Below, piece after piece: positions 11,300-53,331 of a stretch of 64,000 nt of DNA. The translations under genes and the position numbers were made by a program. The stretch covers positions 248,001 through 312,000 of the forward strand of contig JOEL01000012.1 of the NCBI GenBank assembly GCA_000720995.1, given 5' to 3'. The stretch comes from Streptomyces celluloflavus. Lineage in GTDB: Bacteria > Actinomycetota > Actinomycetes > Streptomycetales > Streptomycetaceae. Numbering within the stretch: the first letter of the stretch is position 1; the number at the start of each line of letters is the position of its first letter. Below the pieces are notes generated by a model that searched no databases, was not told where the DNA came from, and worked only from the letters and a program-made list of their open reading frames with translations.

Positions 11300-11423
11300 C
11301 GGACCGTCATGAACCACGGTCACGCACTGCGCACCGGGCGGCGCACATCGCCCGTCACGGCGTACGTGCCCAGCACCCGCTGTGACCGCCATGACCGCCG
11401 TGACCGCGCGGCACAATGTCCGC

Positions 11424-36756: not shown

Positions 36757-39700
36757 GTGTCGCTACAGTCCCCCAACAGCTCGAGCATCTCGACCGACCA
36801 AGAGGGGCAGGGAAAGAACCCTGCCGCCGCGTTCGGTCCCAATGAGTGGCTCGTCGACGAGATCTACCAGCAGTACCTCCAGGACCCGAACTCGGTAGAC
36901 CGAGCCTGGTGGGACTTCTTCGCCGACTACAAGCCGGGCGGCGCCGCGGCGCCGAGCCAGCCGACGGAGGCCATCGCCCCCGCACCGGCCGCCCCGGCGA
37001 CCCCGGCCGTTCCGGCCGCCCCGACCACGTCGGCCGCCCCCGCTGCCACGAGCGCTCCCGCAGGCTCCTCGGCGCAGCAGGGCGCGGCCCCCGCCGCCCC
37101 GGCTCCGGCGAAGCCCGCGCCGAGCGCTCCGGCGCCCGCCGCTGCCAAGCCGGCCGCTGCCAAGCCGGCCGCCGAGCCCGCGGCCAAGCCGGCCGGCCCC
37201 GAGCTGGTCACGCTGCGTGGCCCCTCGGCCGCCGTCGCGAAGAACATGAACGCCTCCCTGGAGCTGCCGACGGCCACGTCCGTGCGCGCGGTGCCGGTGA
37301 AGCTGCTGTTCGACAACCGCATCGTCATCAACAACCACCTCAAGCGCGCCCGCGGTGGGAAGGTCTCCTTCACCCACCTCATCGGGTACGCGATGGTGCA
37401 GGCCCTCAAGGCCATGCCGTCGATGAACTACTCCTTCGCGCAGAAGGACGGCAAGCCGACGCTGGTCAAGCCGGAGCACGTCAACCTCGGTCTGGCCATC
37501 GACCTGGTCAAGCCGAACGGTGACCGCCAGCTCGTCGTCGCGGCCATCAAGAAGGCCGAGACGCTGACCTTCTTCGAGTTCTGGCAGGCGTACGAGGACA
37601 TCGTCCGCCGCGCCCGCGACAACAAGCTGACGATGGACGACTTCACCGGGGTCACCGCGTCGCTGACGAACCCGGGCGGCATCGGCACCGTCCACTCCGT
37701 GCCGCGGCTGATGCCCGGCCAGGGCCTGATCCTCGGCGTCGGCGCGATGGACTACCCGGCGGAGTTCCAGGGCACCTCCCAGGACACCCTGAACAAGCTG
37801 GGCATCTCCAAGGTCATGACGCTGACCAGCACCTATGACCACCGCGTGATCCAGGGCGCCGCCTCCGGCGAGTTCCTGCGCGTGATGAGCCAGCTGCTGC
37901 TCGGCGAGAACGACTTCTTCGACGACATCTTCAAGTCGCTGCGGATCCCCTACGAGCCGGTCCGCTGGCTGCGCGACATCGACGTCTCGCACGACGACGA
38001 CGTCACCAAGGCGGCCCGGGTCTTCGACCTGATCCACTCCTACCGGGTCCGCGGCCATGTCATGGCCGACACCGACCCGCTGGAGTACCACCAGCGCAAG
38101 CACCCCGACCTCGACATCATCGAGCACGGCCTCACCCTGTGGGACCTGGAGCGCGAGTTCGCGGTCGGCGGCTTCGCCGGCAAGACCATGATGAAGCTGC
38201 GCGACATCCTCGGCGTGCTGCGCGACTCGTACTGCCGCACCACCGGCATCGAGTTCATGCACATCCAGGACCCCAAGCAGCGCAAGTGGATCCAGGACCG
38301 CGTCGAGCGCTCGCACAAGTCGCCCGAGCGCGAGGAGCAGCTGCGCATCCTGCGCCGGCTGAACTCCGCCGAGGCGTTCGAGACGTTCCTCCAGACGAAG
38401 TACGTCGGCCAGAAGCGCTTCTCGCTGGAGGGCGGCGAGTCCGTCATCCCGCTGCTGGACGCGGTCATCGACTCCGCGGCCGAGTCGCGGCTGGACGAGG
38501 TCGTCATCGGCATGGCCCACCGCGGCCGGCTGAACGTCCTCGCGAACATCGTCGGCAAGTCGTACGCGCAGATCTTCCGGGAGTTCGAGGGCAACCTCGA
38601 CCCGAAGTCGATGCACGGCTCCGGCGACGTGAAGTACCACCTGGGCGCCGAGGGCACCTTCACCGGTCTGGACGGCGAGCAGATCACCGTCTCGCTGGCC
38701 GCGAACCCCTCCCACCTGGAGGCCGTCGACCCGATCGTCGAGGGCATCGCGCGCGCCAAGCAGGACCTCATCAACAAGGGCGGCACGGACTTCACGGTCC
38801 TGCCGGTCCAGCTGCACGGTGACGCGGCCTTCGCGGGCCAGGGTGTCGTCGCCGAGACGCTGAACATGTCGCAGCTGCGCGGCTACCGCACCGGCGGCAC
38901 GGTGCACATCGTCATCAACAACCAGGTCGGGTTCACCGCCCCGCCGGAGTCGGCCCGCTCCTCCATGTACGCCACGGACGTGGCCCGCATGATCGAGGCG
39001 CCGATCTTCCACGTGAACGGTGACGACCCGGAGGCCGTGGTCCGCGTGGCGCGGCTCGCCTTCGAGTTCCGCCAGGCGTTCAACAAGGACGTCGTCATCG
39101 ACCTGATCTGCTACCGCCGCCGCGGTCACAACGAGTCCGACAACCCGGCCTTCACCCAGCCGCTGATGTACGACCTGATCGACAAGAAGCGCTCGGTGCG
39201 CAAGCTCTACACCGAATCGCTCATCGGTCGCGGCGACATCACGCTGGAAGAGGCCGAGCAGGCGCTGCAGGACTTCCAGGGCCAGCTGGAGAAGGTCTTC
39301 ACCGAGGTCCGCGACGCGACCACGGCCCCGATGACCCCCGAGGTGCCGCAGCCGCAGGCGGAGTTCCCGGTCGCCGTGGACACCGCGATCTCCCAGGAGG
39401 TCGTCAAGCGGATCGCCTCCTCCCAGGTCAACATCCCCGACCGGGTCACCGTCCACCCCCGCCTGCTGCCGCAGTTGCAGCGCCGCGCGGCCCAGGTGGA
39501 GGACGGCACGATCGACTGGGGCATGGGCGAGACCCTCGCCATCGGTTCGCTGCTGATGGAGGGCACCCCCGTCCGGCTCGCCGGCCAGGACTCCCGCCGC
39601 GGCACCTTCGGTCAGCGCCACTCGGTGCTCATCGACCGCGAGACCGGCGAGGACTACACCCCGCTGCTCTACCTCTCCGAGGACCAGGCCCGTTTCAACG

Positions 39701-40560
39701 TCTACGACTCGCTGCTGAGCGAGTACGCGGCGATGGGCTTCGAGTACGGCTACTCGCTGGCCCGTCCGGAGTCGCTGGTCATGTGGGAGGCGCAGTTCGG
39801 TGACTTCGTCAACGGCGCCCAGACCGTCGTCGACGAGTTCATCTCCTCCGCCGAGCAGAAGTGGGGCCAGACCTCCGGCGTCACCCTGCTGCTGCCGCAC
39901 GGCTACGAGGGCCAGGGCCCGGACCACTCCTCGGCCCGGATCGAGCGCTTCCTCCAGCTGTGCGCGCAGAACAACATGACGGTCGCCATGCCGACGCTGC
40001 CGTCGAACTACTTCCACCTGCTGCGCTGGCAGGTCCACAACCCGCACCACAAGCCGCTGGTCGTCTTCACCCCGAAGTCGATGCTGCGTCTGAAGGCCGC
40101 GGCGTCGAAGACGGAAGAGTTCACGACGGGCGGCTTCCGCCCCGTCATCGGCGACACCACGGTGGACGCGGCCGCCGTCCGCAAGGTCGTCTTCTGCGCC
40201 GGCAAGGTCTACTACGACCTGGAGGCCGAGCGCGAGAAGCGCGGTGCGCACGACACGGCGATCGTCCGTATCGAGCGGCTCTACCCGCTGCCCGGCAAGG
40301 AGCTCCAGGCGGAGATCGCCAAGTTCCCGAACGCCGAGAAGTACCTGTGGGCCCAGGAGGAGCCGGCGAACCAGGGTGCCTGGCCGTTCCTCGGTCTCAA
40401 CCTGATCGACCACCTGGACCTGGCCGTCGGCGCCGATGTGCCGCACGGTGAGCGCCTGCGCCGCATCTCGCGCCCGCACGGCTCGTCCCCGGCCGTCGGT
40501 TCCGCCAAGCGTCACCAGGCGGAGCAGGCCCAGCTGATCGCCGAGGTCTTCGACGCGTAG
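36757..40560 (+). CDS. kgd: Multifunctional 2-oxoglutarate dehydrogenase/decarboxylase (E1o-E2 fusion)
   Basis: Encodes 1267 aa from a GTG. The N-terminal ~45 residues carry the E1o segment [18 protein letters not shown]. An Ala/Pro linker (~65-145) leads to an E2-type acyltransferase domain (~150-390) with [19 protein letters not shown]. The ThDP-dependent E1 part follows: [47 protein letters not shown] and [15 protein letters not shown]. No lipoyl domain is present, as in the mycobacterial enzyme, so lipoyl groups come from other E2 proteins. It catalyses the 2-oxoglutarate to succinyl-CoA step of the TCA cycle; FHA-protein (GarA/OdhI-type) inhibition is known for the family. Confidence 0.97.
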
Positions 40561-40669: not shown

Positions 40670-43600
40670 CTATACGGGCTGCGGTTCGAAGTCCCAGTAC
40701 GGTCGCCGGCGGCGGCGGGCGGACAGCGTGTGCGGATGCTCGGCGCCCAGGGTCTCGGCGAGCTGCTGGACGGCCTCCTGCTCCAGCTTCGCCGCCTCCT
40801 GACCGCGGCGCAGCGTGCGCAGGTCCTCGGCGAGCGCCGTCTTGGCGGAGAGCGTCAGCGGATGGGTCCCGCCCAGCGCCGCCTTGGCCCGCTCCAGGGT
40901 GTCGTGGCTGAGCTCCACCGCGCCGTCCTCGTCCTCGACGCGGTTGCGGGCGGCGGCGGTGTTCAGCGCGCAGCCCAGCGTCCAGGGGTGGTCGGGTCCC
41001 ATGATCCGGGTCATATCGCCCAGTGCCCGTTCGGCGATGTCCAGCGCCTCGGTGAGCTCCCCGAACGCGCCACGGGCCAGGCCGGTGTTGCCCAGGGTGC
41101 CGATGGTGTACGGGTGGTCCGCACCGGCCAGGGCTCGGTAGCGCTCGGCGACCTCCTCGGCGAGGTCGCGGGCGTGCCCGAGGTCGCCGTGCTCGCGCAG
41201 GAAGGTGGCGTAGTCGGCGCGCACCATCAGCGTCTCGGGGTGCCGGGGCCCCTGCACCCGGCGGGAGCGCTCGACGAGGTCGGCCATCAGGGCGTCGGCC
41301 CGGCCGAGTTCACCGGAGCGGCGCAGGCAGAGCGCGAGGTCGTGTTCGGCGCGCAGCGTCTGCGGTGTGTGCGAGCCCATCACCTGCCGGTGCAGCCGGG
41401 CGTTCAGCTCCTGGCTGGAGGTGGCGTCGCGGTAGCGGCCCAGCAGCCGCAGCATCCGGGAGTAGGAGGCGCCGGCGTTGAGGGTGAGGTGGTGGCGGGC
41501 GCGCAGCTCGCGCTCCCGGAAGGCCAGCACATCGCGGAAGGTGCCCAGCGCGTCCTCGTAGCGGCCGAGCAGGGCGAGGGCGGAGCCGAGGTTGTGCCGC
41601 GAGGAGAGGGTGCGGGGCGCCTCGGGGCCGAGCACCTCGGTGTAGGTCCGCCACACGGTGTCGAAGAGGGTGTACGCCTCCTCGTACGAGCCGAGCGCCA
41701 TCAGCGTGCCGGCCAGGCCGTCCTGGGCGCGCAGCAGATCGGAGTCGGCCGGGGTGCGTTCGGCGGCGAGCTGGTCGACGATGGCGCTGCCGACCGCCTC
41801 GGCCTCGCGGTAACGGCCCATCCGGCGCAGCATGTTGGCGTGCTGGTGGGTGAGGACGAGCATGGTGCGCCGGGTGGGCTCCATGCGGGTGCTCCAGCGC
41901 GCGAGGAACTGCTCGCACAGCCGCAGGCCCATGCGGTTCTCGCCGCGCACCCGCAGGTATTCGATGCAGTTGAGCAGGAGTTCCTGGACGGCCGGTTCGG
42001 GGCTGTCCAGGACGCCGGCCGGCTCCAGGTGCGGGATGAGTTCGGCGTAGCGCTCCCAGTAGCGGGTGTCGGAGGGGTTCTGCGGGTCGGCGGTGACCAG
42101 TACCCGGCAGGCCGTCGCGGACATCTGGTCGCGCTCGTCCTCGGTCATGTCGCTGCGCAGGAAACGGTGGTAGAGCCGGTGCATCTGCGCGGTCTCGACG
42201 GCCGGGTCGGACTCCTCGGAGAGCTGGTAGTCCAGGCGGACGGCGGTGGATTCGGTCAGCCGGCGCAGCGCGGTGTTCCAGCTGATCGGCTCGACGGCGA
42301 GGTCCGCGAGGTGTTCGGGCAGATCGCCGCGGCGGGCCTTGGCGAGCATCGGTACGGGGATGGCGTCGGGGGTGAAGAACGCGAACAGCTTGAGGAGTTC
42401 CACCGCGGCGGGGCTGCGTTCGCGCAGGGTGTTGAGGGTTATGGCCCAGCTGGTCTGGAAGGCCATCGGGTAGTCGGAGGAGATGCGGATGCCGACCAGG
42501 CTGGGTTCGCCGCGGCGGATCAGCTCGATGTACTCCTTGGGGGACATCGGGTTGGCGTCCAGCCAGGCGGCGGTCTGCGCGAGCAGCAGCGGCAGGTCCT
42601 GGACGGCCTCGGCGAGCAGGTCGGCCTCCAGCGGCGTCAGCCGCGGCGCCCGGCGCCTGGCGTAGGCGACGCTCTCCATCCGGTTGAAGGGCCGCACCTC
42701 GATCTCCTGGGCGCTGCCGGATCCCGACCAGTCGCGGGTGAGCGTGGTGATCAGGACATGGCCGCGGCCGTCGGGGACGAGGTCCTCGATCTGCTCCATG
42801 TCGTCGGCGCTGTCGAAGACCAGCAGCCAGCGGCGGTAGGGGCGGCCGACCCGCAGCGCCTCGTGGACGGCCCGGATGCGGTCGCCGAGTTCATGGCCCA
42901 CCGGGAGGCCCAGGCGGTTGGCGAGTTCGGCGAGCTGTTCGCGGGCGGCGCCGCGGTTGGTGGCGCTGATCCACCACACCACGTCGTAGTCGTTGCCGAA
43001 GCGGTGGGCGTATTCGGCGGCGATCTGGCTCTTGCCGACGCCGGAGATGCCGTACAGCGCGATCCGGGTCTCCAGCGGCGGGCCGGCGCCGAGGCCGCCG
43101 CCGGCGAGCTTGTCGTGCAGCTCCTCCAGGACGTGGTCGCGGCCGGTGAAGCGGTTGTTGCGGCGCGGGACGTTCCAGACCTCGGGCGGGTCGTTGGGGA
43201 AGCGCGGGGCGCCGGGGGACGGTTCGCCGCGCGGGCGCCGTGCGGAGGTGACGCCGAGGCGTTGCAGGACGCGGCGGTTGGCCTCGACGGCGTCCAGGTC
43301 GCGCAGGTCGGCGGGGCGCAGCACGGCGGCGGTGGCGGGCAGCTTCTGGGTGGCGACGCTGACGGCGGCGAACCGGTCGGCGTGCGGTGTCACCACTTCC
43401 TGGAGCGCGTCCGTCCACTCCTCGTGGGACTTGGGTCCGAGCCGGAAGTACCAGTCGTCCAGCACCATCAGGAGGCGGCCCTCGGCGGCGAGCAGTCCGG
43501 ACAGCTCGTCGGCGAGCGGGGTCTCCGGGACGGGGTCCCAGCGCAGCAGGGTGGTGCCGTGGCCCAGCTGCTCCAGCTGGTGGGAGATCCACGCCGCCCA

Positions 43601-43744
43601 GGGCCGGTTGAATCCGGCGTAGCTGATCGTGATGTGTTCGTGGGAGCGGGCGGGACCGGAGGTGCCGGCGGGACCCGGAGAACCGGAGGAACCTGAGGTA
43701 CCCGAGGAACCAGAGGAATCAGAAAACGTCGACTGATCGGCCAT
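40670..43744 (-). CDS. fxsT: TIR-NB-ARC-TPR protein (FxsT-type)
   Basis: Encodes 1024 aa with GGGAGA upstream of the ATG at 43744. A ~30-residue Gly/Ser tail precedes a TIR-like domain (~36-165: HITISYAGFNRPWAAWISHQLE, LLRWDP, SHEEWTDAL). NB-ARC follows with WNVPRRNNRFTGRD, Walker A YGISGVGKS (~231-239) and Walker B WLLVFDSADD (~306-315). The C-terminal ~400 residues are TPRs with repeating LGPEAPRTLSSRHNLG-like units. This is the architecture named FxsT in FxSxx-COOH gene sets and of STAND/NLR immune ATPases: TPRs sense, NB-ARC switches, TIR may act on NAD+ or nucleotides. The TIR catalytic Glu candidate is in SHEEW. It is last in the block. Confidence 0.9.
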   Translation of the reverse strand: MADQSTFSDSSGSSGTSGSSGSPGPAGTSGPARSHEHITISYAGFNRPWAAWISHQLEQLGHGTTLLRWDPVPETPLADELSGLLAAEGRLLMVLDDWYFRLGPKSHEEWTDALQEVVTPHADRFAAVSVATQKLPATAAVLRPADLRDLDAVEANRRVLQRLGVTSARRPRGEPSPGAPRFPNDPPEVWNVPRRNNRFTGRDHVLEELHDKLAGGGLGAGPPLETRIALYGISGVGKSQIAAEYAHRFGNDYDVVWWISATNRGAAREQLAELANRLGLPVGHELGDRIRAVHEALRVGRPYRRWLLVFDSADDMEQIEDLVPDGRGHVLITTLTRDWSGSGSAQEIEVRPFNRMESVAYARRRAPRLTPLEADLLAEAVQDLPLLLAQTAAWLDANPMSPKEYIELIRRGEPSLVGIRISSDYPMAFQTSWAITLNTLRERSPAAVELLKLFAFFTPDAIPVPMLAKARRGDLPEHLADLAVEPISWNTALRRLTESTAVRLDYQLSEESDPAVETAQMHRLYHRFLRSDMTEDERDQMSATACRVLVTADPQNPSDTRYWERYAELIPHLEPAGVLDSPEPAVQELLLNCIEYLRVRGENRMGLRLCEQFLARWSTRMEPTRRTMLVLTHQHANMLRRMGRYREAEAVGSAIVDQLAAERTPADSDLLRAQDGLAGTLMALGSYEEAYTLFDTVWRTYTEVLGPEAPRTLSSRHNLGSALALLGRYEDALGTFRDVLAFRERELRARHHLTLNAGASYSRMLRLLGRYRDATSSQELNARLHRQVMGSHTPQTLRAEHDLALCLRRSGELGRADALMADLVERSRRVQGPRHPETLMVRADYATFLREHGDLGHARDLAEEVAERYRALAGADHPYTIGTLGNTGLARGAFGELTEALDIAERALGDMTRIMGPDHPWTLGCALNTAAARNRVEDEDGAVELSHDTLERAKAALGGTHPLTLSAKTALAEDLRTLRRGQEAAKLEQEAVQQLAETLGAEHPHTLSARRRRRPYWDFEPQPV

Positions 43745-43878
43745 GCGACCGTCTCCCTGGGATGCGGTGGTGCGCGCGTGCAGAGGCTGTGCGTGGGCGG
43801 GCTGATTGGCACGATAGCCCAAGTGTCGCTCCCTGTGACGACGGTGCGTCAGGCGATCTTGTGGGCGGGGCGGTGGGG

Positions 43879-45021
43879 CTACATCGCGGCGGCCAGCCGG
43901 GCGGCGATATGCCGGATCAGGCGTTCCAGATCGGCGCAGTAGACGGACGGATTGGCGAATCCGCTGGGGCCCGCGCGGTAGCGGTGCGCGTAGTTGCCGC
44001 CGCCGCACACCCGCATCAGGGCGCAGCTGCGGCACTGGGCGCCGAGCGCGTCCGGGCCGCGCCGGCGGGCGGCCATACCGGGGTGGGCGAGGGCCTCGTC
44101 GAAGCTGTGGTGGAAGACGTCGAGGCCGGTGGCGGCGGCGCCCTCGTAGGTGGATTTGAGCGAGTCGACCTGTTCGATGGCGCCGTCGGTGTCGACCACG
44201 AGGGCGACGACCGGGGAGAGGCCGACCGCTTCGCTGGAGCTGGGGCGCCCCAGGAGCAGACCGATGATCTCGGTGAAGAGCCGTACCCGGGGGCCCGGTC
44301 CGCCGTCCCACCAGAGGTCGAAGACGGTGCACAGCCAGTCGCCGTACGGGGTGCGGCGCGCGGGGCCCAGGGGGGCGGGCGGCGGGCTGGACCAGTTGGC
44401 GTGCGGGAGCAGGAAGTCGAGCACGGGCGGGCCGAGGGCGCGCAGCGAGCCGTAGACCTCGGCCGGGTCGGTGGTGATGTCGATGGTGGACAGGATGCCG
44501 GCGAAGACGCCGGGGCGGTCGGCGAGCATCCGTACGGCGCGGGAGACGGCGGGCCAGGAGGGGCGTCCGGCGTGGTCGACGCGGCGGTGGTTGAGACCGG
44601 GGGTGCCGCCGTCGAGGCTGAGGCCGAGGCGGAATCCGGCGGCGCCCAGGGTGTCGATCAGCTCCGGGGTGAGCAGGGTGCCGTTGGTCTGCACGCCGAA
44701 TTCGGCGGTGCATCCGGCGGGCAGCGCGGCGCGGAGGGCGGCGGCCTGGTCGAGGAGCGGGCCGGGGCCGGTGAGCAGCGGTTCGCCGCCGTGCAGGTCG
44801 ATGCGGATCTCGCGCAGGCGGTGGGCGCGGGCGTGTTCGGCGATGCGCAGGGCGCTCTGGCGGAGGGTGGCGGTGGGGACGAGCCGCGGGCGGGCGCGCC
44901 AGCTGCGGTCGGGACCGGCGTAGATGTAGCAGTAGGTGCAGGCGAGGTTGCACCGGCTGTGCATCTTCAGGACGAACTGGCGGAAGGGCACGGTGGTCCT
45001 GCCGGTCTCCACAGCCACCAC
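43879..45021 (-). CDS. fxsB: FxsB-type radical SAM/SPASM peptide maturase
   Basis: Encodes ~380 aa from a GTG at 45021 (GGGGGA upstream; further GTGs follow, so the start may be a few codons later). The radical SAM cluster is CNLACTYCY (C24, C28, C31 in this numbering), preceded by PFRQFVLKMHSR. Next come DLHGGEPLL, GVQTNGTLL and SLDGGTPGLNHRR. The C-terminal Cys-rich part CRSCALMRVCGGGNYAHRY...NPSVYCADL matches the auxiliary-cluster region of FxsB proteins. Family members form cyclophane C-C cross-links at aromatic residues of a short peptide. The 72-aa gene 151 bp upstream is the natural substrate candidate. Confidence 0.88.
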   Translation of the reverse strand: MVAVETGRTTVPFRQFVLKMHSRCNLACTYCYIYAGPDRSWRARPRLVPTATLRQSALRIAEHARAHRLREIRIDLHGGEPLLTGPGPLLDQAAALRAALPAGCTAEFGVQTNGTLLTPELIDTLGAAGFRLGLSLDGGTPGLNHRRVDHAGRPSWPAVSRAVRMLADRPGVFAGILSTIDITTDPAEVYGSLRALGPPVLDFLLPHANWSSPPPAPLGPARRTPYGDWLCTVFDLWWDGGPGPRVRLFTEIIGLLLGRPSSSEAVGLSPVVALVVDTDGAIEQVDSLKSTYEGAAATGLDVFHHSFDEALAHPGMAARRRGPDALGAQCRSCALMRVCGGGNYAHRYRAGPSGFANPSVYCADLERLIRHIAARLAAAM

Positions 45022-45172
45022 GGCGCCGTCCCCCTGCTCTCGTCGGCGGCCGGAACCGTCAACTCCCGCCCGCTGACTGATACATGGCACCACCACCGAT
45101 TGAGGAACCGAATTGCCGCGACAACTGGCCGATTCCCTTGCGCGTTTGCCCAAAAACAACTGCTTCTGACCG

Positions 45173-45391
45173 TCAGTGCAAGAGTTTTTCCGGGCCGTCT
45201 TCGTAGTACGCCACCGCGTCATCCGCCGACGGCCAGTTGCGCAGCAGCAGCGCCGCCACTTCTCCCAGCACCGCGTGGTCCGTCCGCGCCGCCAGACCGG
45301 CCACGTCCACGCCGCCGAAGTCCGGCAGCGGCTCGGCCGACGGACCGGACGGGGCGGCCCCGGCCGGTTCGGTGCGAGGGATCGTCGCCAC
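45173..45391 (-). CDS. Putative RiPP precursor-like peptide beside the radical SAM gene
   Basis: Encodes 72 aa from a GTG at 45391 with GAGGAG 6 nt upstream (a 17-codon longer ATG form from 45442 has no such site). The N-terminal ~22 residues are Pro/Ala-rich; ~25-50 is probably a helix with DFGGVDVAGLAARTDHAVLG and VAALLLRNW. The tail reads WPSADDAVAYYEDGPEKLLH. FxSxx-COOH precursors have a similar acidic, helical leader, but their last five residues are F-x-S-x-x; this peptide has none. Aromatic candidates for cyclophane formation are W53, Y62 and Y63 (WPS, YED). A precursor role is inferred from position only. Confidence 0.72.
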   Translation of the reverse strand: MATIPRTEPAGAAPSGPSAEPLPDFGGVDVAGLAARTDHAVLGEVAALLLRNWPSADDAVAYYEDGPEKLLH

Positions 45392-45454
45392 GCTGCTCTC
45401 CTCTGGGCCGGCTGGACGGGGTGTTCCCGAACTCCCGTCCACAGAAACACGTTC

Positions 45455-45485
45455 CGCCCCGCGCGACCAGGCGGCCGGCGGGGCG
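45455..45485 (-). terminator. Stem-loop between vWA gene and peptide gene
   Basis: Arms CGCCCCGC / GCGGGGCG with a 15-nt loop start 12 nt after the vWA-type gene stop and end 64 nt before the peptide start, suggesting the peptide cassette is a separate transcription unit. Confidence 0.55.
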
Positions 45486-45496
45486 CTCGGGGGCGG

Positions 45497-48400
45497 TCAG
45501 GCGGGGGATTCGAGGGCGCGCATCCGGGCGCGGGTGCGCCGGGCCTCCGGGCCGCTCTCCTCGGCCGCGTGCTGCCACTGCTCCCAGCTCTCGCGGTAGG
45601 CGTGCAGCGCCGGCTGGGGGCCCGCGGTCTCCTCCAGGACCTCGCCGCGCCGGTGGTGGGCGCGGGCCGCGAGCAGCGGACTGCCGCCCCGGTGGGCGTG
45701 CGTCGCGGCGCGGCGGTAGCAGGCGGCGGCCCGGTCGTGCCGCTCCCGGGAGTCGAAGCGGCGGTCCAGCAGCAGTTGGACATCGCCCACTTCGAGCCAT
45801 GCCTCGGCCGCGACGAGCGGCTCCACCCCGGAGCCCCGGGCGGCCAGCTCCAGGATCCAGTCGGCCTCGTGCAGATCGGCGAGCGAGGGCTGGCGTTCGT
45901 GGCGCAGCCGCAGCGCGCGGCCGAAGGCCAGCCGGTGGGCGCCCAGCTCCGGATCCTGCGGCGCGACCCGGGCCAGCGCCTCCCGCAGGACGTGCACCGC
46001 GTCGTTGGCCAGCCGCCTGCCCGGTTCGGGGTCCGGCTCCAGCCGGGCCCGCAGCAGCAGCGCCGCGCCGCGCTCGGCGAGCAGCGCGCTGTGCTCGGGG
46101 GAATCGGGGACGGTCAGCCGCTGCGCGGCGGCCAGCGCGGCGATGGCCTCGTCCAGGGGGCCCGGCGCGCCCGTCCAGGTGTGCACGGCGCGCTGCGCGG
46201 CCGCGATCCGGCGCAGGCTGTCGGCCTCCAGGGCCGGTTCGGCGAGGGTCCGCGCCATCGCGCGGGCCCGCTCCAGGGTGGGCAGCACGGACGGCAGCGC
46301 GCTGCCGCCGGTCAGCGAGCGGGCCGCCGCCAGATCCAGCAGCGTCTCGCAGACCACCCGGTCGGCGGCGCTGCCACGGCGGCGCAGCAGCAGGGTGGCG
46401 GTGTCGAGGTCGTCCGCGGCACGGACCGCGAGCGCCTCGGCGGGGCGCGGCCCGTCCGGGCGTACGCGGCCGGCCCGGCGGGCCTGGTCCAGCAGGACGC
46501 CGCCGCGCGCCGCGTACACCTCGCCGGGAACCTGCTCGCCGCTGGGCCACCGGTCGAGGACGGTGGTGAGGGACCGTTCCGCCTCGTCCAGGGGGTCGGG
46601 CGGACCGGCCCCCTCGGGAGCGCCGGGCCCGGCGGGCGCCCCGGTGGCCGGCGGCAGGGCGGCCATCCGGCGCAGGACCTCGGTCCGTAGCACCGTGCTC
46701 TCCAGGAAACGCGGGTCGAGCAGGCTCATCAGCCCGCAGGCGGCGTGCAGTTGGCGCGCGGCGTCCGCCAGCGCGGTGCGCTCCTCCTCCGGTGCGCCGG
46801 CCCCCGCACGCTCCCGGGCGCGGGCGTACCGGACCCGGCCGAGCACGATCAGCGCCCGGGTGCGCTCCGCCTCCCGGCCCGCGGCCTCCGCCGCCCCGGC
46901 TTCCTCCCCGGCCGTCCCCACCTCCTGGTCGTCGGCCGGGCCCGGCGCGGTGGCCCGCTCCGCGGCGCGCACCGCGCGTTCGGCCTCCGCCAGGGCGTCG
47001 GGCTGGCGCCACTTCGCCCAGGCGTGCAGCAGGGCGCGGGCCAGGTCGGTGCCGGCCGGCGGCAGCCGGTGGGCCGCCGCGCGCAGCAGCCGGACGGCCT
47101 CGATCAGGTCCCGTACGGCGCTGCCCTGTTCGTAGCGCTCCAGTAGGGCGGCGCCCTCGGCGGCCGGGCCGTCGCCGGGGTAGGGCGGCTGCTCGGGCGG
47201 CCGCAGCGCCGGTTCGAAGCGGCGCAGGACGTGTTCGGAGACCCGGGCGAACGGTTCGGGGACGGGGCGGCGGCCGGACTCCGGCTCCCGGCCGCTGCCG
47301 GAGAGCATCGCGACGGCGACGGCCGGGAAGTTGCGGGCGCCGCGGCCGAAGGTGCGCTCCACGTAGAGCGAGCAGTGCTTGAGGACCAGCGCGGCCTCGC
47401 CCGCGCTCAGCCGGCCGAGCAGTTCGTCCCGTACGCCGGGCACGAAGTCGTACCACGGGCCGCTCGCCCCGTCCGCCTCCCCCGCCGGCCGGTCCGCCGC
47501 CGGGAGTTGGGTGACCAGGCCGCCGAGCAGCACCTCGGCCAGCTCGGCCGGTCCGGTGTGCGGCAGCATCGCGCGCTGTACGAGCTGGATGACCGGCAGC
47601 GCCAGCGGGACCGCCGACAGGTGCACCGCGAGCAGCCGGGCGTCCGGCGAGGCGGACCGGTCGAATTCGCGGACCCTGCGGGCCGGTGCGGAGGGCTCCG
47701 CCTCGGCCGGGCGGCCGCCGGGCTCCGCGCCGTGGTCGGCGCGGACCACACAGGCGGCGCCGCGCAGCGACAGGCCGGCATCGGCCGCGGCCAGCCTGGC
47801 CCAGGCGCCGAGCGCGGCGGGCGTCGCGGAGAGCACCGGGATGGCGCGGCCGCGGCCGGCGTCCGGGGCCGGTCCGGGCGCCGCGGGGGCCCGGCGGCGC
47901 CTGGCGGGCCGGAAGCCGAGGGCCTGGTACGGGCCCTGGTGGCGGACGAGGGTACCGGCGACGGCGGGCAGCCGGGTGCGCGCCCACATCCGCTGCGGCA
48001 GCGGCTGGACGACGGCGACCGGCGCGTCGGCCGCCCAGCGGTGGAGCAGCCGCTGGAGCCGGCCGTCCTGCCACAGCGGGCCCGCGCAGTCACTGACGAC
48101 GAGGGTGAGGTGGTGGCCGGTGGGATCGTGCAGCTGGCCGGCGGGGCGCAGCGGCCGGCCGGGGCCGGGGGCCGCGGCGACACCGACGTCCGGGCCGTGC
48201 GGGTGGAGGTAGTGCACCGTGACGTCGCGGAAGGCGCCCACCCGCTCGCAGACCTGGCGCAGATCGTGCAGCATCTGCTCCCAGACGGCCATCGAGGACG
48301 AGCCGTCCATCAGCAGCCGCAGACCGGCCTCCCGGCGGTGCACCCCGCGCAGCACCGGGATGACCGTCTCGGCGTGTGCGGAGAGTTCGGCGGTGGCGGG

Positions 48401-48886
48401 CTCGTCCAGCTCCCGGCGGACCGGTGCGACCGGCGGGTGGTAGCGCTGGACGGGCCGCAGGGCGCGCTGGAGCGGCAGCAGCCCGGGGAAGGCGGCGGCG
48501 ATCGGGACGGCGACCTCGCCGAGCCGGTGGCGGTCCGGATCGGGCGGCCGCGCCTCCCGGGCGGGCCGCAGCTCCGCCTCCGTGCGGCGGGCGCCGTCCC
48601 GGGGCGCGTACGGGCCGCCGGGCTCGGGTGCGGCCGCCGCGCCGGGCTCCACGGATCCGGCCGGGCCCACGGTGAAAGTGGCCGGATCGCTGCATCCGGC
48701 GGTGGTGGAACCGGCCTCGCCCGTGGCGTCCCGGGCGGTCTGCTGATCACCCGGCGTGATCCACTGGGCGAGCCAGAGGGCATCGGCCATCCCCCGGGCG
48801 TCGGCGGGCAGCCCCGCCGCGGTCAGCCGGGCGACGAGCTGGTCGAGGGGTCCCGGACCGGACTCCCCCACAGCCATCGCGTTCAC
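45497..48886 (-). CDS. SAV_2336-type protein with vWA-like domain and helical repeats
   Basis: Encodes 1129 aa from a GTG overlapping the MoxR stop by 4 bp (ATG 48877, with AGGTG upstream, is the alternative). The N-terminal LDQLVARLTAAGLPADARGMADALWLAQW is the SAV_2336 N-terminal pattern. A vWA-like domain follows: LRLLMDGSSSMAVWEQML gives the MIDAS DxSxS near 194, with HLTLVVSDCAGPLW later. Beyond ~450 the sequence is helical and TPR-like, rich in Ala/Arg/Glu. vWA proteins encoded next to MoxR ATPases act as its adaptors, here within a vWA-MoxR-VMAP ternary conflict system. Confidence 0.85.
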   Translation of the reverse strand: MNAMAVGESGPGPLDQLVARLTAAGLPADARGMADALWLAQWITPGDQQTARDATGEAGSTTAGCSDPATFTVGPAGSVEPGAAAAPEPGGPYAPRDGARRTEAELRPAREARPPDPDRHRLGEVAVPIAAAFPGLLPLQRALRPVQRYHPPVAPVRRELDEPATAELSAHAETVIPVLRGVHRREAGLRLLMDGSSSMAVWEQMLHDLRQVCERVGAFRDVTVHYLHPHGPDVGVAAAPGPGRPLRPAGQLHDPTGHHLTLVVSDCAGPLWQDGRLQRLLHRWAADAPVAVVQPLPQRMWARTRLPAVAGTLVRHQGPYQALGFRPARRRRAPAAPGPAPDAGRGRAIPVLSATPAALGAWARLAAADAGLSLRGAACVVRADHGAEPGGRPAEAEPSAPARRVREFDRSASPDARLLAVHLSAVPLALPVIQLVQRAMLPHTGPAELAEVLLGGLVTQLPAADRPAGEADGASGPWYDFVPGVRDELLGRLSAGEAALVLKHCSLYVERTFGRGARNFPAVAVAMLSGSGREPESGRRPVPEPFARVSEHVLRRFEPALRPPEQPPYPGDGPAAEGAALLERYEQGSAVRDLIEAVRLLRAAAHRLPPAGTDLARALLHAWAKWRQPDALAEAERAVRAAERATAPGPADDQEVGTAGEEAGAAEAAGREAERTRALIVLGRVRYARARERAGAGAPEEERTALADAARQLHAACGLMSLLDPRFLESTVLRTEVLRRMAALPPATGAPAGPGAPEGAGPPDPLDEAERSLTTVLDRWPSGEQVPGEVYAARGGVLLDQARRAGRVRPDGPRPAEALAVRAADDLDTATLLLRRRGSAADRVVCETLLDLAAARSLTGGSALPSVLPTLERARAMARTLAEPALEADSLRRIAAAQRAVHTWTGAPGPLDEAIAALAAAQRLTVPDSPEHSALLAERGAALLLRARLEPDPEPGRRLANDAVHVLREALARVAPQDPELGAHRLAFGRALRLRHERQPSLADLHEADWILELAARGSGVEPLVAAEAWLEVGDVQLLLDRRFDSRERHDRAAACYRRAATHAHRGGSPLLAARAHHRRGEVLEETAGPQPALHAYRESWEQWQHAAEESGPEARRTRARMRALESPA

Positions 48887-49962
48887 CTCGTCCGGTCAAG
48901 AGGCCGCATGAGCTCGGCCGTCAGGCGCCGTCGGGTCTCCTCCTCGTCCTGGTCCGTCCAGCCGGCCTGCTGTGTGAGGTGGATGGCGTTGAACAGCTGG
49001 TCGACGGCGCGGACATCGCCGGGCTCGCGGTCCAGGAAGCGGTCGATCACCGAGGCGTGGCGCTCGGCGGCGCCCTCGCCGAAGTGGGCCCGCACCATGG
49101 CGGCGAGCCGCTCCTTGTCCGGTGCCGGGATGTGGAGGTGGATGCAGCGGCGCAGCAGGGGCGCCGGGAAGTCCCGTTCGCCGTTGCTGGTGAGCACGAT
49201 GAACGGGAAGGCGTGGCAGCGCACCCGGCCGTCGCGCACCGTCACCGGCGCGCCGTCGTCGCTGAGCACCCGCACCTCGGGGGCGGATCCGGCCAGCCGC
49301 TCCAGCTCCGGAATCCTGAACTCCCCCTCCTCCAGGACGTTGAGCAGGTCGTTGGGCAGGTCGATATCGCTCTTGTCCAGCTCGTCGACGAGCAGCACCC
49401 GGGGTCTGGCGGCGGGCAGCAGGGCCGTGCCCAGCGGGCCGAGGCGGATGTAGCGGCCGATGCCGCCGCCGGGCTCGGCGGTGTGGTCCGGGTCCGGGGC
49501 GGGCGCGGCGGCGCCCTCCGGGGCGTCCTGGCCGGCGGGCCGCGGCGGGGTGGCGCGGGCGATCTGGAGGTCCTGGAGGCGGCCGATGGCGTCGTAGGCG
49601 TACAGGCCGTCGCGGAGCGTGCTGCGGCTGACGACCGGCCAGCTGAGCACCCGGCCGAGGCCGAGTTCGTAGGCGACCGAGTGGGCCAGGGTGCTCTTGC
49701 CGCTGCCCGGGGCACCGGTCACCAGCAGCGGCCTGCGCAGATAGAGCGCGGCGTTGACCAGCTCGCGCTCGGTCTCGCCGGGCCGGTGGTGGCTGGCCTC
49801 CCTGCGCAGCACGCCGAGCCGGCGTTCGGAGGCGGGGTCGAGGGCGGTCGGCGGCGGGATGTCGGGCCCGCCGTCGAAATCGCGCCAGGGCGGGGGCGGC
49901 GGGAGCTGTTCGATTCCGTCGTGCGGTGCTCCCGCGCCGCGGTAGATGAGCCAGTCGCTCAC
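48883..49962 (-). CDS. MoxR-type AAA+ ATPase
   Basis: Encodes 359 aa from a GTG at 49962 with GAGGAG 7 nt upstream. Walker A is TGAPGSGKST (~82-91), Walker B VLLVDELDKSDIDLP, and FIVLTSNGERDFPAPLLRRC is the sensor-1/arginine-finger region of MoxR proteins. A ~40-residue insert with Pro/Asp/Glu-rich sequence (QDAPEGAAAPAPDPDHTAEPG) lies between the Walker boxes. MoxR ATPases remodel protein complexes with a vWA partner; the partner gene overlaps by 4 bp downstream. The protein starts SDWLIYRGAGAPHDGIEQLP, a typical opening for this subgroup. Confidence 0.92.
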   Translation of the reverse strand: MSDWLIYRGAGAPHDGIEQLPPPPPWRDFDGGPDIPPPTALDPASERRLGVLRREASHHRPGETERELVNAALYLRRPLLVTGAPGSGKSTLAHSVAYELGLGRVLSWPVVSRSTLRDGLYAYDAIGRLQDLQIARATPPRPAGQDAPEGAAAPAPDPDHTAEPGGGIGRYIRLGPLGTALLPAARPRVLLVDELDKSDIDLPNDLLNVLEEGEFRIPELERLAGSAPEVRVLSDDGAPVTVRDGRVRCHAFPFIVLTSNGERDFPAPLLRRCIHLHIPAPDKERLAAMVRAHFGEGAAERHASVIDRFLDREPGDVRAVDQLFNAIHLTQQAGWTDQDEEETRRRLTAELMRPLDRTR

Positions 49963-50379
49963 GTCGGAACTCCTCGTCGCCGGCCAGCCATCGGGCAGGG
50001 AGCGATGGTCGCGGCGGACCGCCCCGGAGACGGTGGCGTCCGCCCCGGCCCTTCCCCCACGCCCGCCACGCACACTCACGAATCAATGTCTCATGACGCT
50101 ATGACAGGAGCGAGCCGTACGGAAGCTCACGGGGGCGGTTTCCGGTCTCCCGCACCGTCGCCACGCGCCGCCAAGTGCCGTGCAGGGGACGTGACTTGCG
50201 GTATCCGGCGGCGCCGGGTCCGGTCGCGGCGGCCGGGCGCATGCAGGGCGTACGGGCGCGCGGGGGCGTACGGAGGACGGGGCGGACCGACGGACGAAGG
50301 GGCCTGGAGGAGGGGGACGGCGGCGCAACCCGGCCCGCCGGCGGGGGCCCGTTGCGGCGGCCGCGTACCGGCCGGGCGG
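49963..50379. other. 417-bp gap inside the VMAP block
   Basis: The gap separates the VMAP/Trypco1 pair from the MoxR/vWA pair. It contains a GC-rich hairpin next to the VMAP stop (50321-50359). An AT-richer part at 50060-50125 includes TCATGACGCTATGACAG and is a plausible place for the MoxR promoter. No small gene with a family signature was found. Confidence 0.5.
50321..50359 (-). terminator. Stem-loop after the VMAP gene
   Basis: Imperfect arms CGGCGCAACCCGGCCCGCC and GGCGGGGGCCCGTTGCGGCG face each other without a spacer, 21 nt beyond the VMAP stop. Confidence 0.6.
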
Positions 50380-52578
50380 TCACCGGGGCGACACCTGCGG
50401 CCGGGCCGTGAAGAGCTGCGGGATGGGGTCCTCGGGGTCGTCGTAGAGGAGCACCAGATCGCGGGCCCAGTGGGCGCCTTCCTCCGCGGCCTTCGCCCGC
50501 AGCTCCCGGACGAGCTCGGGGAGGCGGGCCAGTGAGCCGGACCCCTGGAGCAACTCCCGTACGCCGCGGTGGAATTCCTCGCAGGAGGCGTCGCAGGACC
50601 GCTCGCCGTGGCCGGCCGCGGACCACAGTCCGGCCGGGAAGCCGGTGTCCAGGGCGGCGCCGGCCGCGTCCCGGCCGGTCCCGTCGGCGACCGTATGGCA
50701 CAGCGCGGGCACCGCACCGTCGTCCGCCTCCTCCAGGAGCCGCCAGACCCCGTCGGCGGAGCCCGCCGCCGCTCCCGCGCCGTCCCGGCGGGGCGGCGGG
50801 ACGCGCAGCGCGTGCAGTGCGGGGGCGACGGCGACGCGCTGCCAGCGGCGCAGCCAGGCCGGGTCGATCTCCTCGCGGCGCCCCTGGTCGCGCAGGATCA
50901 CCGCGCGCCCCGGGCCCACCGGCCGCGCCCGTGCGGTGCGCCGGGTCGAGGCCGCGACCTCCCAGCGGTCGGCCGGGGTGTGCCAGTGCCCCTCGGGGAC
51001 GGCGACCTCCAGGCGCACCCGGGCGCCCGGTCCCGCGTCGCCGTCGGCGCGCAGCAGCCGGGCCCCGAGCCGCCGCAGGACCTGCGCCCGCGCCTGCTCG
51101 AAGGGCACCCCGCCGTCCGACTCCTGGACGTCCACCCGCAGCCACTGCCCCCGGCCGTACCCCTCGCTGACCGACCAGTTGAACAGCTCGCCCTCGCCGT
51201 CGTCGTAGAACAGCGGCTCGAACTCGACGAGTACGGAGCGCGGCCGGCGCCGCACGGGGCCGATCCGGCGGCGGTCCTGCGGCTGCAGCACCACTGCTTT
51301 GGCCTGGACGAACTCCGCGAGGTGGGCGGCGTGTTCGCGCGCCTCGGCGGCCGCTTCGCCGGGCGCCTCGCGCACCTCGTCCGCGACCCGCTGTGCCACG
51401 ATCCGCAGATAGTGCACGAAGGCGCAGAGTTCGGTGTACGGGTCGCTGCCCTGGTAGAGCGCGCCGTGGCCGTCCCGCCAGGTGCGCAGCGCCCAGGCCC
51501 CGGGGCCCTCGCCTCGGTCCAGCGCCTCGCCGACCGCCGCCTCCACGACGAGCGGATCGCGCGGCGCGGGCAGCCGGGCGAGCAGGTCGAGCGCCTGCAA
51601 CCGCTCCTGCACGCCCCACAGCCGGCCGCGCCCCGCCATGATGGCGTGCTGGGCGTCGAACCAGGTGGGCCCGCCGGGGCGGCCGAGGTCCTGTCCGCTC
51701 CAGTGCCAGCGGTCGTGCAGGCCCATCAGCGCGTGGTACGGGTCGGGGCCGAGCCCGGTGGCGCCCGCGACGAGGTGTTCGGGGCCCAGTCCGCGCAGCG
51801 CGGTGACCGGCACCGCGAGTCCGACGTGGTCCTGCTGGTGGCGCCCCTTGACGATGCCGACCACCTCGCCGCGGTCGCAGTCGAGCAGCGGTCCCCCGGA
51901 GGCGCCGGGGGTGACCCGGACGTCGCTGCCGAACTGGAGCCCCCGGGCGTCCCGGGCACCGAACCGGACGGCGATGAACGGGGTGAACGGATCGGCGGCT
52001 CCCCCGGGTGCGCCGGGAGCGCCACCCGCCTCACCTGCGCCGCCCGCCTCGGCCGCATCGCCCGCCGCGCGTACGCCGCCCCCGTCACGTACTACGCGTT
52101 CGTGCGCGGCGTCCGTACGCGGCGGGCGGTCCGTACCGGGCCGGTCGTGGCCCCGGAAGATGTACGCGTCCTCCAGGAGCGTCGCCGGCTGGTCGCTGAA
52201 CCAGGCGCAGGGGTGCTCGGTGTCCGGGTCGAGCAGCCGGACCAGGGCGAGATCGGCGCGGGCGGTGCCCGGTCCGGCCGCCGGGTCGGGCCGGCTCAGG
52301 TCGTACTCCAGCCGGGCGGCCGCCAGCCGTCCGCCGAACGCGACGCCGAACACCCCGTCGGGGCCGAGGTCGCGCCGCCGCCCGTCGCTCGCGGCGAGCA
52401 CATGGGCGCAGGTCAGGACCCAGCCGGGGGCGATCAGCACACCGCTGCCCCACAGCCGGGGATCCGGTGCGTCCGGTGCGGCGCGCAGGGCGACGGTGGT
52501 GCGTCCGGCGTGTGCGAGGAGCTGTCCGTACCGCGCCCGGTCGCCGCGGCCGTGGGTCCGCTCCTCCGAGGTCGCCAT
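50380..52578 (-). CDS. Trypsin-like serine protease with VMAP-type C-terminal domain
   Basis: Encodes 732 aa from the ATG at 52578. The trypsin-like domain (~15-250) has WGSGVLIAPGWVLTCAHVLA (His59), ARADLALVRLL (Asp109) and TPGASGGPLLD (Ser228), so the triad looks complete. An Ala/Gly/Glu-rich insert (~165-195) sits before the Ser strand. The rest is an alpha/beta and helical region with WEVAASTRRTARARPVGPGRAVIL and a C-terminal LLYDDPEDPIPQ, matching the vWA-MoxR-associated protein (VMAP) pattern. It is the likely effector or sensor of the ternary system. It shares a 1-bp stop/start overlap (TGATG) with the Trypco1-like gene. Confidence 0.86.
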   Translation of the reverse strand: MATSEERTHGRGDRARYGQLLAHAGRTTVALRAAPDAPDPRLWGSGVLIAPGWVLTCAHVLAASDGRRRDLGPDGVFGVAFGGRLAAARLEYDLSRPDPAAGPGTARADLALVRLLDPDTEHPCAWFSDQPATLLEDAYIFRGHDRPGTDRPPRTDAAHERVVRDGGGVRAAGDAAEAGGAGEAGGAPGAPGGAADPFTPFIAVRFGARDARGLQFGSDVRVTPGASGGPLLDCDRGEVVGIVKGRHQQDHVGLAVPVTALRGLGPEHLVAGATGLGPDPYHALMGLHDRWHWSGQDLGRPGGPTWFDAQHAIMAGRGRLWGVQERLQALDLLARLPAPRDPLVVEAAVGEALDRGEGPGAWALRTWRDGHGALYQGSDPYTELCAFVHYLRIVAQRVADEVREAPGEAAAEAREHAAHLAEFVQAKAVVLQPQDRRRIGPVRRRPRSVLVEFEPLFYDDGEGELFNWSVSEGYGRGQWLRVDVQESDGGVPFEQARAQVLRRLGARLLRADGDAGPGARVRLEVAVPEGHWHTPADRWEVAASTRRTARARPVGPGRAVILRDQGRREEIDPAWLRRWQRVAVAPALHALRVPPPRRDGAGAAAGSADGVWRLLEEADDGAVPALCHTVADGTGRDAAGAALDTGFPAGLWSAAGHGERSCDASCEEFHRGVRELLQGSGSLARLPELVRELRAKAAEEGAHWARDLVLLYDDPEDPIPQLFTARPQVSPR

Positions 52579-52997
52579 CAGCGGCCCGGGTCGGCCGGCT
52601 CCCGGCGGCCGACGGCGGGCTGCTCGCCACCGGACGCGTTCCCGTCCTCGCGCCGCCAGGTGAGCGTCACCGAGAGGTTCGCCTTCGCCTCGCCGTCCGC
52701 GAGGAGGGCGACGGCCTTGCCGGGTTTGGCCGAGACCTCCACGCCGAAGGTCACGCTGGTCTCGTGCGGCGCCACCCGCTCGGTGGCCTGCCGGACGCTG
52801 GCGGCGACCCCGCCGATCACCTCGCGGAGCCCCTCGACCCGGGCGCCGAGCGCCTCCCAGGTGCCGACGTCCTCGAAGTCGGCGTACTCGCCGTCCGGCC
52901 CGACCGGATCGTCCAGCCCCGCGGCGTCCAGTCTGGAGACCCGGGCCCAGACCTCCGTACCGTCGGGCAGTGCGATGCGCTGCGCGCGATCTTGCAT
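52578..52997 (-). CDS. CU044_2847 / trypsin-co-occurring domain 1 (Trypco1) protein
   Basis: Encodes 139 aa from the ATG at 52997, with GGGAGG 5 nt upstream (the GTG just before is too close to it). The sequence has RIALPDGTEVWARVSRL, a helix LREVIGGVAASVRQA, and the strands ETSVTFGVEVSAKPGKAVALLADGEAKANLSVTLTW, the Trypco1 pattern. Trypco1 proteins are encoded with trypsin-like proteases in predicted bacterial conflict systems and may be their substrate or regulator. It is the first gene of the protease operon. Confidence 0.88.
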   Translation of the reverse strand: MQDRAQRIALPDGTEVWARVSRLDAAGLDDPVGPDGEYADFEDVGTWEALGARVEGLREVIGGVAASVRQATERVAPHETSVTFGVEVSAKPGKAVALLADGEAKANLSVTLTWRREDGNASGGEQPAVGRREPADPGR

Positions 52998-53148
52998 CAC
53001 GGCCTCCCGCTCCCCGTTGGCGGCAATTCCCCATCGCCGCAGGACCGTTGACAGGCGCTCAGGTTAGCTCCCGGGTGCCCGCGGCGCGAGAGCCGTGCGG
53101 GCCTGCCTATCCTGGCCGGAATGTCCCATGACCCCTGGTGGAGCGCAC

Positions 53149-53331
53149 GTGTATTTCACTGACCGCGGTATCGAGGAGCTGGAGAACCGGCGTGGCGAGG
53201 AGGAGGTCACCCTCGGCTGGGTGGCCGATCAGCTGCGTACGTTCGTCGACCTGAACCCGGATTTCGAGGTGCCGGTGGAGCGGCTGGCTACCTGGCTGGC
53301 CCGGCTCGACGACGACGAGGACGAAGACTGA
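53149..53331 (+). CDS. DUF6104-family small protein
   Basis: Encodes 60 aa from a GTG at 53149 with GGAG upstream. The sequence YFTDRGIEELENRRG, VTLGWVADQLRTFVDLNPDFEVPVERLATWLARL and an acidic DDDEDED tail match a conserved streptomycete small protein (DUF6104). Function unknown. It is divergent from the Trypco1/VMAP operon, and the downstream sequence contains short TGACGAGGACTGACG-like repeats. Confidence 0.85.
   Translation: MYFTDRGIEELENRRGEEEVTLGWVADQLRTFVDLNPDFEVPVERLATWLARLDDDEDED

What the first reader, a model, noticed from the sequence alone, without database searches (positions are those of the whole stretch)
40670..52997. Composite locus joining a vWA-MoxR-VMAP/Trypco1 conflict system to a TIR-NB-ARC-TPR plus radical SAM peptide cassette
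Seven minus-strand genes in a row: Trypco1, trypsin-like/VMAP with an intact-looking triad, MoxR ATPase, vWA/SAV_2336 protein, a 72-aa peptide, FxsB-type maturase and TIR-NB-ARC-TPR protein. Each part is known in predicted NTP-dependent conflict systems or FxSxx gene sets. The arrangement suggests a full pathway: infection or damage sensed by the TPR/VMAP proteins, switching by the NB-ARC and MoxR ATPases, and effect through protease, TIR domain or modified peptide. The flow is inference.
Basis: partly seen in the sequence, partly recalled or inferred. Interest (0 to 1): 0.88.

Follow-up and report, generated by a model that had tools for sequence, protein, structure and literature searches.

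The report
Swappable peptide-armed NLR-like Streptomyces cassette
Seven neighbouring Streptomyces genes form one known type of predicted immune or cell-death cassette, here in a variant whose peptide is predicted to carry a tyrosine-aspartate crosslink, and in relatives the cassette is present, absent or swapped for another version at one fixed address in the chromosome.

Summary
[quoted passage not shown] The join is not chance: at 137 DUF6104/kgd sites the block is present in 49, wholly absent in 81, unresolved in 7, and the halves' trees agree (r=0.86). Nor is the composite new: Kaur et al. 2020 (PMC7159879, section 24) describe it for FxSxx peptides. The window carries a variant: a YxD-tail peptide (NF041709) and no HExxH gene. 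A second allele in the same slot has FxSxx-like tails plus a gene whose one scanned example is an aKG-HExxH peptide hydroxylase, not the peptidase assumed in 2020. Tail and HExxH gene co-vary: of 75 distinct loci without it, 73 have aromatic-x-Asp and 2 aromatic-x-Asn. The slot lies about a third of the chromosome from an end, full or empty, which may explain part of the published preferred location of VMAP systems. Function (defence, cell death or self-recognition) is inferred, not shown. New variant of a known kind.

The parts
52578..52997 (-). Trypco1 (trypsin-co-occurring domain 1), 139 aa
   Evidence: PF19493 65.3 bits, NF041216 66 bits
50380..52578 (-). VMAP: N-terminal trypsin-like protease with H, D, S of the triad, C-terminal VMAP-C domain, 732 aa
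   Evidence: PF13365, PF20028; triad kept in 20 aligned sequences; ATG shares TGATG with the Trypco1 stop
48883..50079 (-). MoxR-like AAA ATPase, 398 aa (start uncertain), Walker A GAPGSGKS
   Evidence: PF07728 over cut-off; MadB and bpMoxR under cut-off; Walker A
45497..48886 (-). vWA-TPR protein: SAV_2336 N-terminal domain with a DxSxS motif, C-terminal all-helical TPR superhelix, 1129 aa
   Evidence: NF041121 418 bits; motif; model of the last 614 residues, pLDDT 87.9, and Foldseek TPR matches
45173..45391 (-). 72-aa precursor peptide, YxD-tail cyclophane RiPP family
   Evidence: NF041709 83 bits, cut-off 55
45197..45205 (-). predicted crosslink core Y63-E64-D65 in the tail AVAYYEDGPEKLLH
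   Evidence: sequence; aromatic-x-Asp in 73 and aromatic-x-Asn in 2 of 75 distinct loci without HExxH (L200 read by eye)
43879..45021 (-). FxsB-type radical SAM/SPASM maturase, about 380 aa (start uncertain), CNLACTYC
   Evidence: TIGR04269 423 bits, cut-off 370; motif
40670..43744 (-). TIR-NB-ARC-TPR protein, 1024 aa
   Evidence: NF040586 865 bits; TIR_2, NB-ARC, TPR_12; TIR model and Foldseek
43418..43420 (-). Glu before an invariant Trp at the start of a TIR helix; candidate catalytic Glu
   Evidence: Glu in 20 of 22 aligned and in 43 of 47 TIR proteins by pattern; equivalence to known NADase Glu is recalled, not computed
36757..40560 (+). left border of the slot: 2-oxoglutarate dehydrogenase (kgd)
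   Evidence: NF008907 2106 bits, cut-off 878
53128..53331 (+). right border of the slot: DUF6104 gene (start uncertain)
   Evidence: PF19599 121.9 bits, cut-off 27

Best explanation
The block is one inherited unit: a VMAP-MoxR-vWA ternary system with a radical-SAM-made cyclophane peptide and a TIR-NB-ARC-TPR (NLR-like) effector, in a YxD allele. Shown here: the genes, their joint presence or absence, their co-divergence, the slot and the tail-HExxH link. Inferred: FxsB crosslinks Tyr63 to Asp65 of the peptide; the crosslinked tail stays inside the cell and is a ligand or a guarded decoy read by a TPR superhelix (of the TIR-NB-ARC protein or of the vWA-TPR protein). Infection or damage is sensed by the VMAP/vWA complex; MoxR ATP hydrolysis frees the trypsin domain (in this allele perhaps held by Trypco1), which cuts the peptide leader or the complex, and the NB-ARC oligomer then lets the TIR domain consume NAD+, stopping the hyphal compartment.
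For: Slot: 49 occupied, 81 empty, 7 unresolved of 137 DUF6104 sites; 44 of the 49 carry trypsin, MoxR, SAV_2336, FxsB, TIR and NB-ARC together. 56 of 63 named loci with long enough flanks carry all seven core domains, 55 of them with Trypco1 (the query was A-type FxsB and only the best 80 of 218 relatives were kept). MoxR and FxsB distances agree, Mantel r=0.86, n=46 with L041 left out, 0 of 2000 permutations as high. A maturase called YxdB makes a C3(Tyr)-Cbeta(Asp) link (passages of PMC11002830). TIR fold and Glu kept; the vWA protein ends in a TPR superhelix. Trypsin triad kept in 20 of 20 aligned, and trypsin-type models are the only peptidase models matched in the seven proteins. No transporter model is matched.
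Against: No experiment on this cassette was found in the searches made (open-access library only). PADLOC matches are only viperin-type radical SAM for FxsB and IetA/Mad8-type AAA and similar for the ATPase, read here as generic. Trypco1 has no tblastn match in 26 of the 49 occupied sites, and in the gaps inspected no Trypco1-like frame was seen except in L048, which has one, so a Trypco1 lock is not general. TIR-NB-ARC-TPR relatives (NF040586) are in 150 of 150 genomes in several copies, so the effector type is not special to the cassette. VMAP dN/dS near 1 against L033 is near saturation and proves nothing. Arg/Lys upstream of the tail (109 of 113) fits trypsin, but such residues are common. 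TIR TM-scores are modest, about 0.5.
Confidence: 0.42

Rival explanations
1. Same unit, but its job is development or programmed hyphal death, not phage defence.
For: Fixed address away from the chromosome ends in most genomes measured; purifying selection on all seven genes against L032; no convincing PADLOC system.
Against: Absent at 81 of 130 resolved sites, unlike a core developmental gene; VMAP is the least conserved part (33% identity to L033, against 64% for MoxR and 69% for FxsB).
Confidence: 0.2
2. A RiPP biosynthesis cluster whose exported peptide is an antimicrobial or signal, with the ternary system as regulator or immunity.
For: FxsB and YxD families are RiPP families by name; precursors differ much outside the tail.
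Against: No transporter model among the seven proteins; the ternary half co-diverges with the peptide half. An exporter elsewhere in the genome was not looked for.
Confidence: 0.15
3. Two unrelated halves lie side by side by chance in this strain.
For: Standalone peptide systems exist (PMC7159879, section 24); five named loci (L214, L216, L219, L224, L242) have a YxD peptide and FxsB without a SAV_2336 or VMAP match; L061 and L168 hold the ternary half without an FxsB or TIR match.
Against: 44 of 49 occupied sites hold both halves; distances agree.
Confidence: 0.02

Closest known systems
VMAP ternary system with peptide-processing system and a separate TIR-AP-ATPase-TPR gene (Kaur et al. 2020, PMC7159879; section 24 read, passages of section 9)
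   Same: Gene set; order VMAP-MoxR-vWA, with the TIR-AP-ATPase-TPR gene downstream of the peptide system; vWA protein with TPRs only; Trypco beside trypsin.
   Different: The paper's four peptide types are FxSxx, RxD, acidic and FtsH-associated; YxD is not in its main text; the metallopeptidase gene it calls the core of the peptide system is absent here.
YxD cyclophane peptides and YxdB (Sugiyama et al. 2022, seen only as cited in PMC11002830; NCBIfam NF041709)
   Same: Peptide family over cut-off; predicted Tyr-x-Asp crosslink.
   Different: Chemistry not tested for this peptide; a link to the ternary system was not in the passages seen.
FxSxx-like allele of the same slot (33 of 49 occupied sites)
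   Same: Same address, same order of the shared genes.
   Different: Mostly W-G-F-[ND]-[SN] tails and an HExxH gene between FxsB and TIR; the one example scanned is TIGR04267, 162 bits, cut-off 40.

Membership tests
VMAP ternary conflict system | VMAP-C protein, MoxR ATPase and vWA protein in that gene order | tested here: met
   PF20028 and NF041121 over cut-off with an AAA ATPase between them; order as stated in the section 9 passage
VMAP ternary conflict system | MoxR clade AAA (helix-2 insert) | tested here: inconclusive
   bpMoxR 18.5 bits under cut-off 27; PDB search gave only weak RuvB and clamp-loader matches; the insert was not modelled
VMAP ternary conflict system | vWA metal-site aspartates | tested here: met
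   DGSSSM and SDC in the window; simple patterns found the first motif in 44 of 50 proteins and both in 35 of 50
FxSxx-type peptide-processing system (Kaur et al.) | FxSxx C-terminal motif | tested here: not met
   tail is AYYEDGPEKLLH
FxSxx-type peptide-processing system (Kaur et al.) | zincin-like HExxH gene | tested here: not met
   no HExxH motif from FxsB to TIR, gap 138 bases; no HExxH family match in the seven proteins (for FxsB only the best 25 of 50 families were shown)
YxD-tail cyclophane RiPP peptide NF041709 | curated score cut-off and YxD tail | tested here: met
   83 bits, cut-off 55
YxD-tail cyclophane RiPP peptide NF041709 | Tyr-Asp crosslink present | not testable with these tools
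   needs mass spectrometry or NMR
FxsB maturase TIGR04269 | curated cut-off and CxxxCxxC | tested here: met
   423 bits, cut-off 370; CNLACTYC
TIR NADase | TIR fold with catalytic Glu | tested here: inconclusive
   12 of the 15 Foldseek matches at E<=0.001 are TIR structures, the other 3 are not; Glu before the invariant Trp in 43 of 47; no PDB sequence match; catalytic equivalence recalled
Known anti-phage system (PADLOC) | convincing match to a system's models | tested here: not met
   only pVip (radical SAM) and IetA, Mad8 and similar AAA matches

The most novel reading that the evidence does not exclude
The kgd-DUF6104 slot is a bacterial self-recognition locus, a counterpart of fungal vegetative-incompatibility loci: divergent alleles (YxD; FxSxx-like plus HExxH; and one HExxH-only form) at one address, each pairing a chemically marked peptide with its own NLR-like TIR-NB-ARC-TPR reader, so that mixing the cytoplasm of unlike hyphae, or a phage that disturbs the pairing, triggers death.
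Probability: 0.07. Interest if true: 0.88.

Novelty: new variant of a known kind. Interest (0 to 1): 0.5.

Why it matters
It turns a predicted system into a testable one: natural presence, absence and allele differences at one address give ready controls. It suggests that the published one-third chromosomal preference of VMAP systems may partly reflect a single fixed slot. It shows that the HExxH gene, once read as the peptide's protease, is dispensable and tied to tail type, which leaves trypsin-VMAP as the candidate protease.

Tried and rejected
Chance adjacency: rejected. FxSxx label for the peptide: rejected. Metallopeptidase reading of the HExxH gene in the other allele: doubtful, since the family is now named aKG-HExxH-type peptide beta-hydroxylase and passages of PMC12636437 report hydroxylation by a radical-SAM-fused HExxH protein; but the same passages report that PflC, another HExxH enzyme, cleaves backbones, also proteolytically without the leader, so cleavage is not excluded. 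Phage or plasmid origin: no phage match for the peptide; 20 plasmid records match FxsB, all below 60% identity. PDB sequence search with the TIR alignment gave 0 matches. Presence outside the family: 24 of 296 class genomes match NF041709 at E<=0.001, 2 over the cut-off, both in the window's genus. A possible second address for VMAP systems near 0.31 of the chromosome was not followed.
Full report
What is there. [quoted passage not shown] They are packed: TGATG shared by Trypco1 and VMAP, a four-base overlap of MoxR and vWA. The peptide is NF041709 (83 bits, cut-off 55), a YxD-tail peptide; its end is AVAYYEDGPEKLLH, not FxSxx. The MoxR label is weak by family models and rests largely on its place between VMAP and vWA. 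The own genome has one SAV_2336, one VMAP-C and one FxsB over cut-off, all in this block, but 11 matches to the TIR-NB-ARC-TPR family NF040586 (the lower ones were not listed).

Is the join real. DUF6104 was found in 149 of 150 genomes of the family. I read 137 of these 149 sites: the window, 36 stretches fetched around NF041709 matches, and 100 stretches anchored on DUF6104. Twelve sites were left out by choice, because DUF6104 lies near a contig start or the assembly is poor or fragmented (chosen). NF041709 matched in 44 genomes; 40 were fetched, the others being the window itself and G109, G118, G127, which the DUF6104 set covered. Four of the 40 stretches (L041, L043, L047, L070) do not show DUF6104. 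Result (recounted): 49 occupied, 81 empty, 7 unresolved. Empty means kgd on the expected side of DUF6104 and none of ten block queries; in 48 of the 81 less than 600 bases lie between, in 33 other DNA up to 5.8 kb. kgd itself is seen in 39 of the 49 occupied stretches; the rest end before it or lack it. Trypsin, MoxR, SAV_2336, FxsB, TIR and NB-ARC are together in 44 of 49. The five others: L038 and L154 stop at stretch or contig ends; L061 keeps the peptide but has no FxsB or TIR match; L168 has no FxsB or TIR match and runs into a gene that looks like a polyketide synthase (not scanned); L085 has TIR-NB-ARC and an HExxH gene but no FxsB match. Two unresolved sites (G044, G128) and one left out (G146) have VMAP and SAV_2336 within about 11 kb on the other side of DUF6104.

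Named relatives. A scan with A-type FxsB gave 76 loci from Streptomyces, Streptantibioticus and Actinacidiphila (best 80 of 218 kept, so biased to this type). With long enough flanks: 63. All seven core domains: 56 of 63; Trypco1 in 55 of those; kgd and DUF6104 both seen in 43, at least one in 54. Seven of the 63 lack part of the set, among them L214, L219, L224 and L242, where a YxD peptide and FxsB stand without SAV_2336 or VMAP matches.

Co-inheritance. FxsB and MoxR trees separate the two alleles (one change for FxsB, two for MoxR; quick trees). Path lengths of MoxR and FxsB correlate at 0.86 (46 loci, L041 left out because of its very long branch); with a 390-base end of kgd the values are 0.41 and 0.59 (38 loci). 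In the window's own genus, 3 occupied sites carry allele A and 10 allele B. This fits exchange at the slot, but an old polymorphism with losses is not excluded; no species tree was built.

Two alleles. At the slot 12 sites are A and 33 B, 4 not assigned. A (window): FxsB-TIR gap of 124-239 bases in the 12 loci where it could be measured, one of them (L047) not beside DUF6104, and no HExxH motif. L041, elsewhere in its genome, has a gap of 5214. B: a gap of 1181-2149 bases with an HExxH frame. One B example scanned is TIGR04267, aKG-HExxH-type peptide beta-hydroxylase. Over 118 distinct loci with FxsB (of 125), 116 have a known HExxH state. Of 75 without it, 73 have aromatic-x-Asp and 2 aromatic-x-Asn (L200 read by eye). 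Of 41 with it: F-x-N 24, F-x-S 10, Y-x-S 1, F-x-A 1, F-x-E 1, F-x-D 1, and 3 without a match (L055 has an odd tail; for L169 and L245 no peptide was found). The state for unnamed loci was assigned by hand. L226 counts as without HExxH, because its HExxH match lies upstream with other genes. In A, 38 of 75 end exactly two residues after the Asp or Asn, a YxDxx-COOH form that mirrors FxSxx-COOH.

Known chemistry. Passages of PMC11002830 report a C3(Tyr)-Cbeta(Asp) link by YxdB and a C4(Phe)-Cbeta(Ser) link by MscB. [quoted passage not shown] So the 2020 reading of the HExxH gene as the peptide's protease is doubtful, and allele A lacks the gene. Trypsin-VMAP, triad kept in all 20 sequences aligned, is then the one candidate protease common to both alleles. 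This is inference.

Effector parts. The TIR model (mean pLDDT 83.8) matches TIR structures in 12 of the 15 hits at E<=0.001, with TM-scores near 0.5; the Glu before an invariant Trp is kept in 43 of 47 (one Ala, one Gln, two not matched by the pattern). The last 614 residues of the vWA protein form an all-helical superhelix (mean pLDDT 87.9) with OGT and LGN TPR domains among its matches. This agrees with the paper's statement that the vWA protein of this type has only TPRs.

Address. In 45 genomes whose main contig is about 90% or more of the assembly (picked by hand), the slot lies at 0.324 of the length from the nearer end (16 occupied, range 0.18-0.41; G044 counted as occupied here though unresolved) or 0.339 (29 empty, range 0.12-0.41). 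By the per-genome counts these genomes hold 56 SAV_2336 matches; 42 were listed and used, 14 weaker ones were not. Of the 42, 16 are within 20 kb of DUF6104 and 26 elsewhere. All 42 depart from a uniform spread (p=0.006); the 26 do not (p=0.23). Bins are small, genomes are related, and 7 of the 26 lie between 0.28 and 0.38, so a second address is possible. Kaur et al. report a preferred location near 33% and suggest arm recombination. A fixed slot beside kgd would explain part of it.

Known or new. The architecture is known and the YxD peptide is a named family. The YxD allele in this system, the allele swap at one slot and the address were not found in the main text of that paper (no oxoglutarate, no YxD) nor in the open-access searches; subscription papers and supplements were not seen.

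Noticed in passing
L085 (genome G092), about 9600-11724 in the orientation: Third form at the same slot: a related precursor with tail AWCEGQGDQAA, an HExxH gene (HEIHH) but no radical SAM match, and TIR-NB-ARC downstream.
   Followed up: partly
L214, L216, L219, L224, L242, and L226: YxD peptide and FxsB in another gene context. In the first five a MoxR-like match lies downstream and no SAV/VMAP match is seen; NB-ARC and TIR matches lie downstream in all but L224; L226 has other ternary genes upstream.
   Followed up: no
L220 and L227: Precursor tails with two YxD-like motifs (AYFSDAP and a second AYFADxP), perhaps two crosslinks.
   Followed up: no
genomes G044, G128, G146: VMAP and SAV_2336 matches lie within about 11 kb of DUF6104 but on its other side, as if the slot was rearranged.
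   Followed up: no
26 listed SAV_2336 matches away from the slot: Six lie between 0.30 and 0.35 of the chromosome; a second fixed address is possible.
   Followed up: no
B-allele loci of genus g7, e.g. L060, L052, L067: No Trypco1 match and no convincing reading frame between DUF6104 and trypsin, though the trypsin triad is kept in those aligned.
   Followed up: partly
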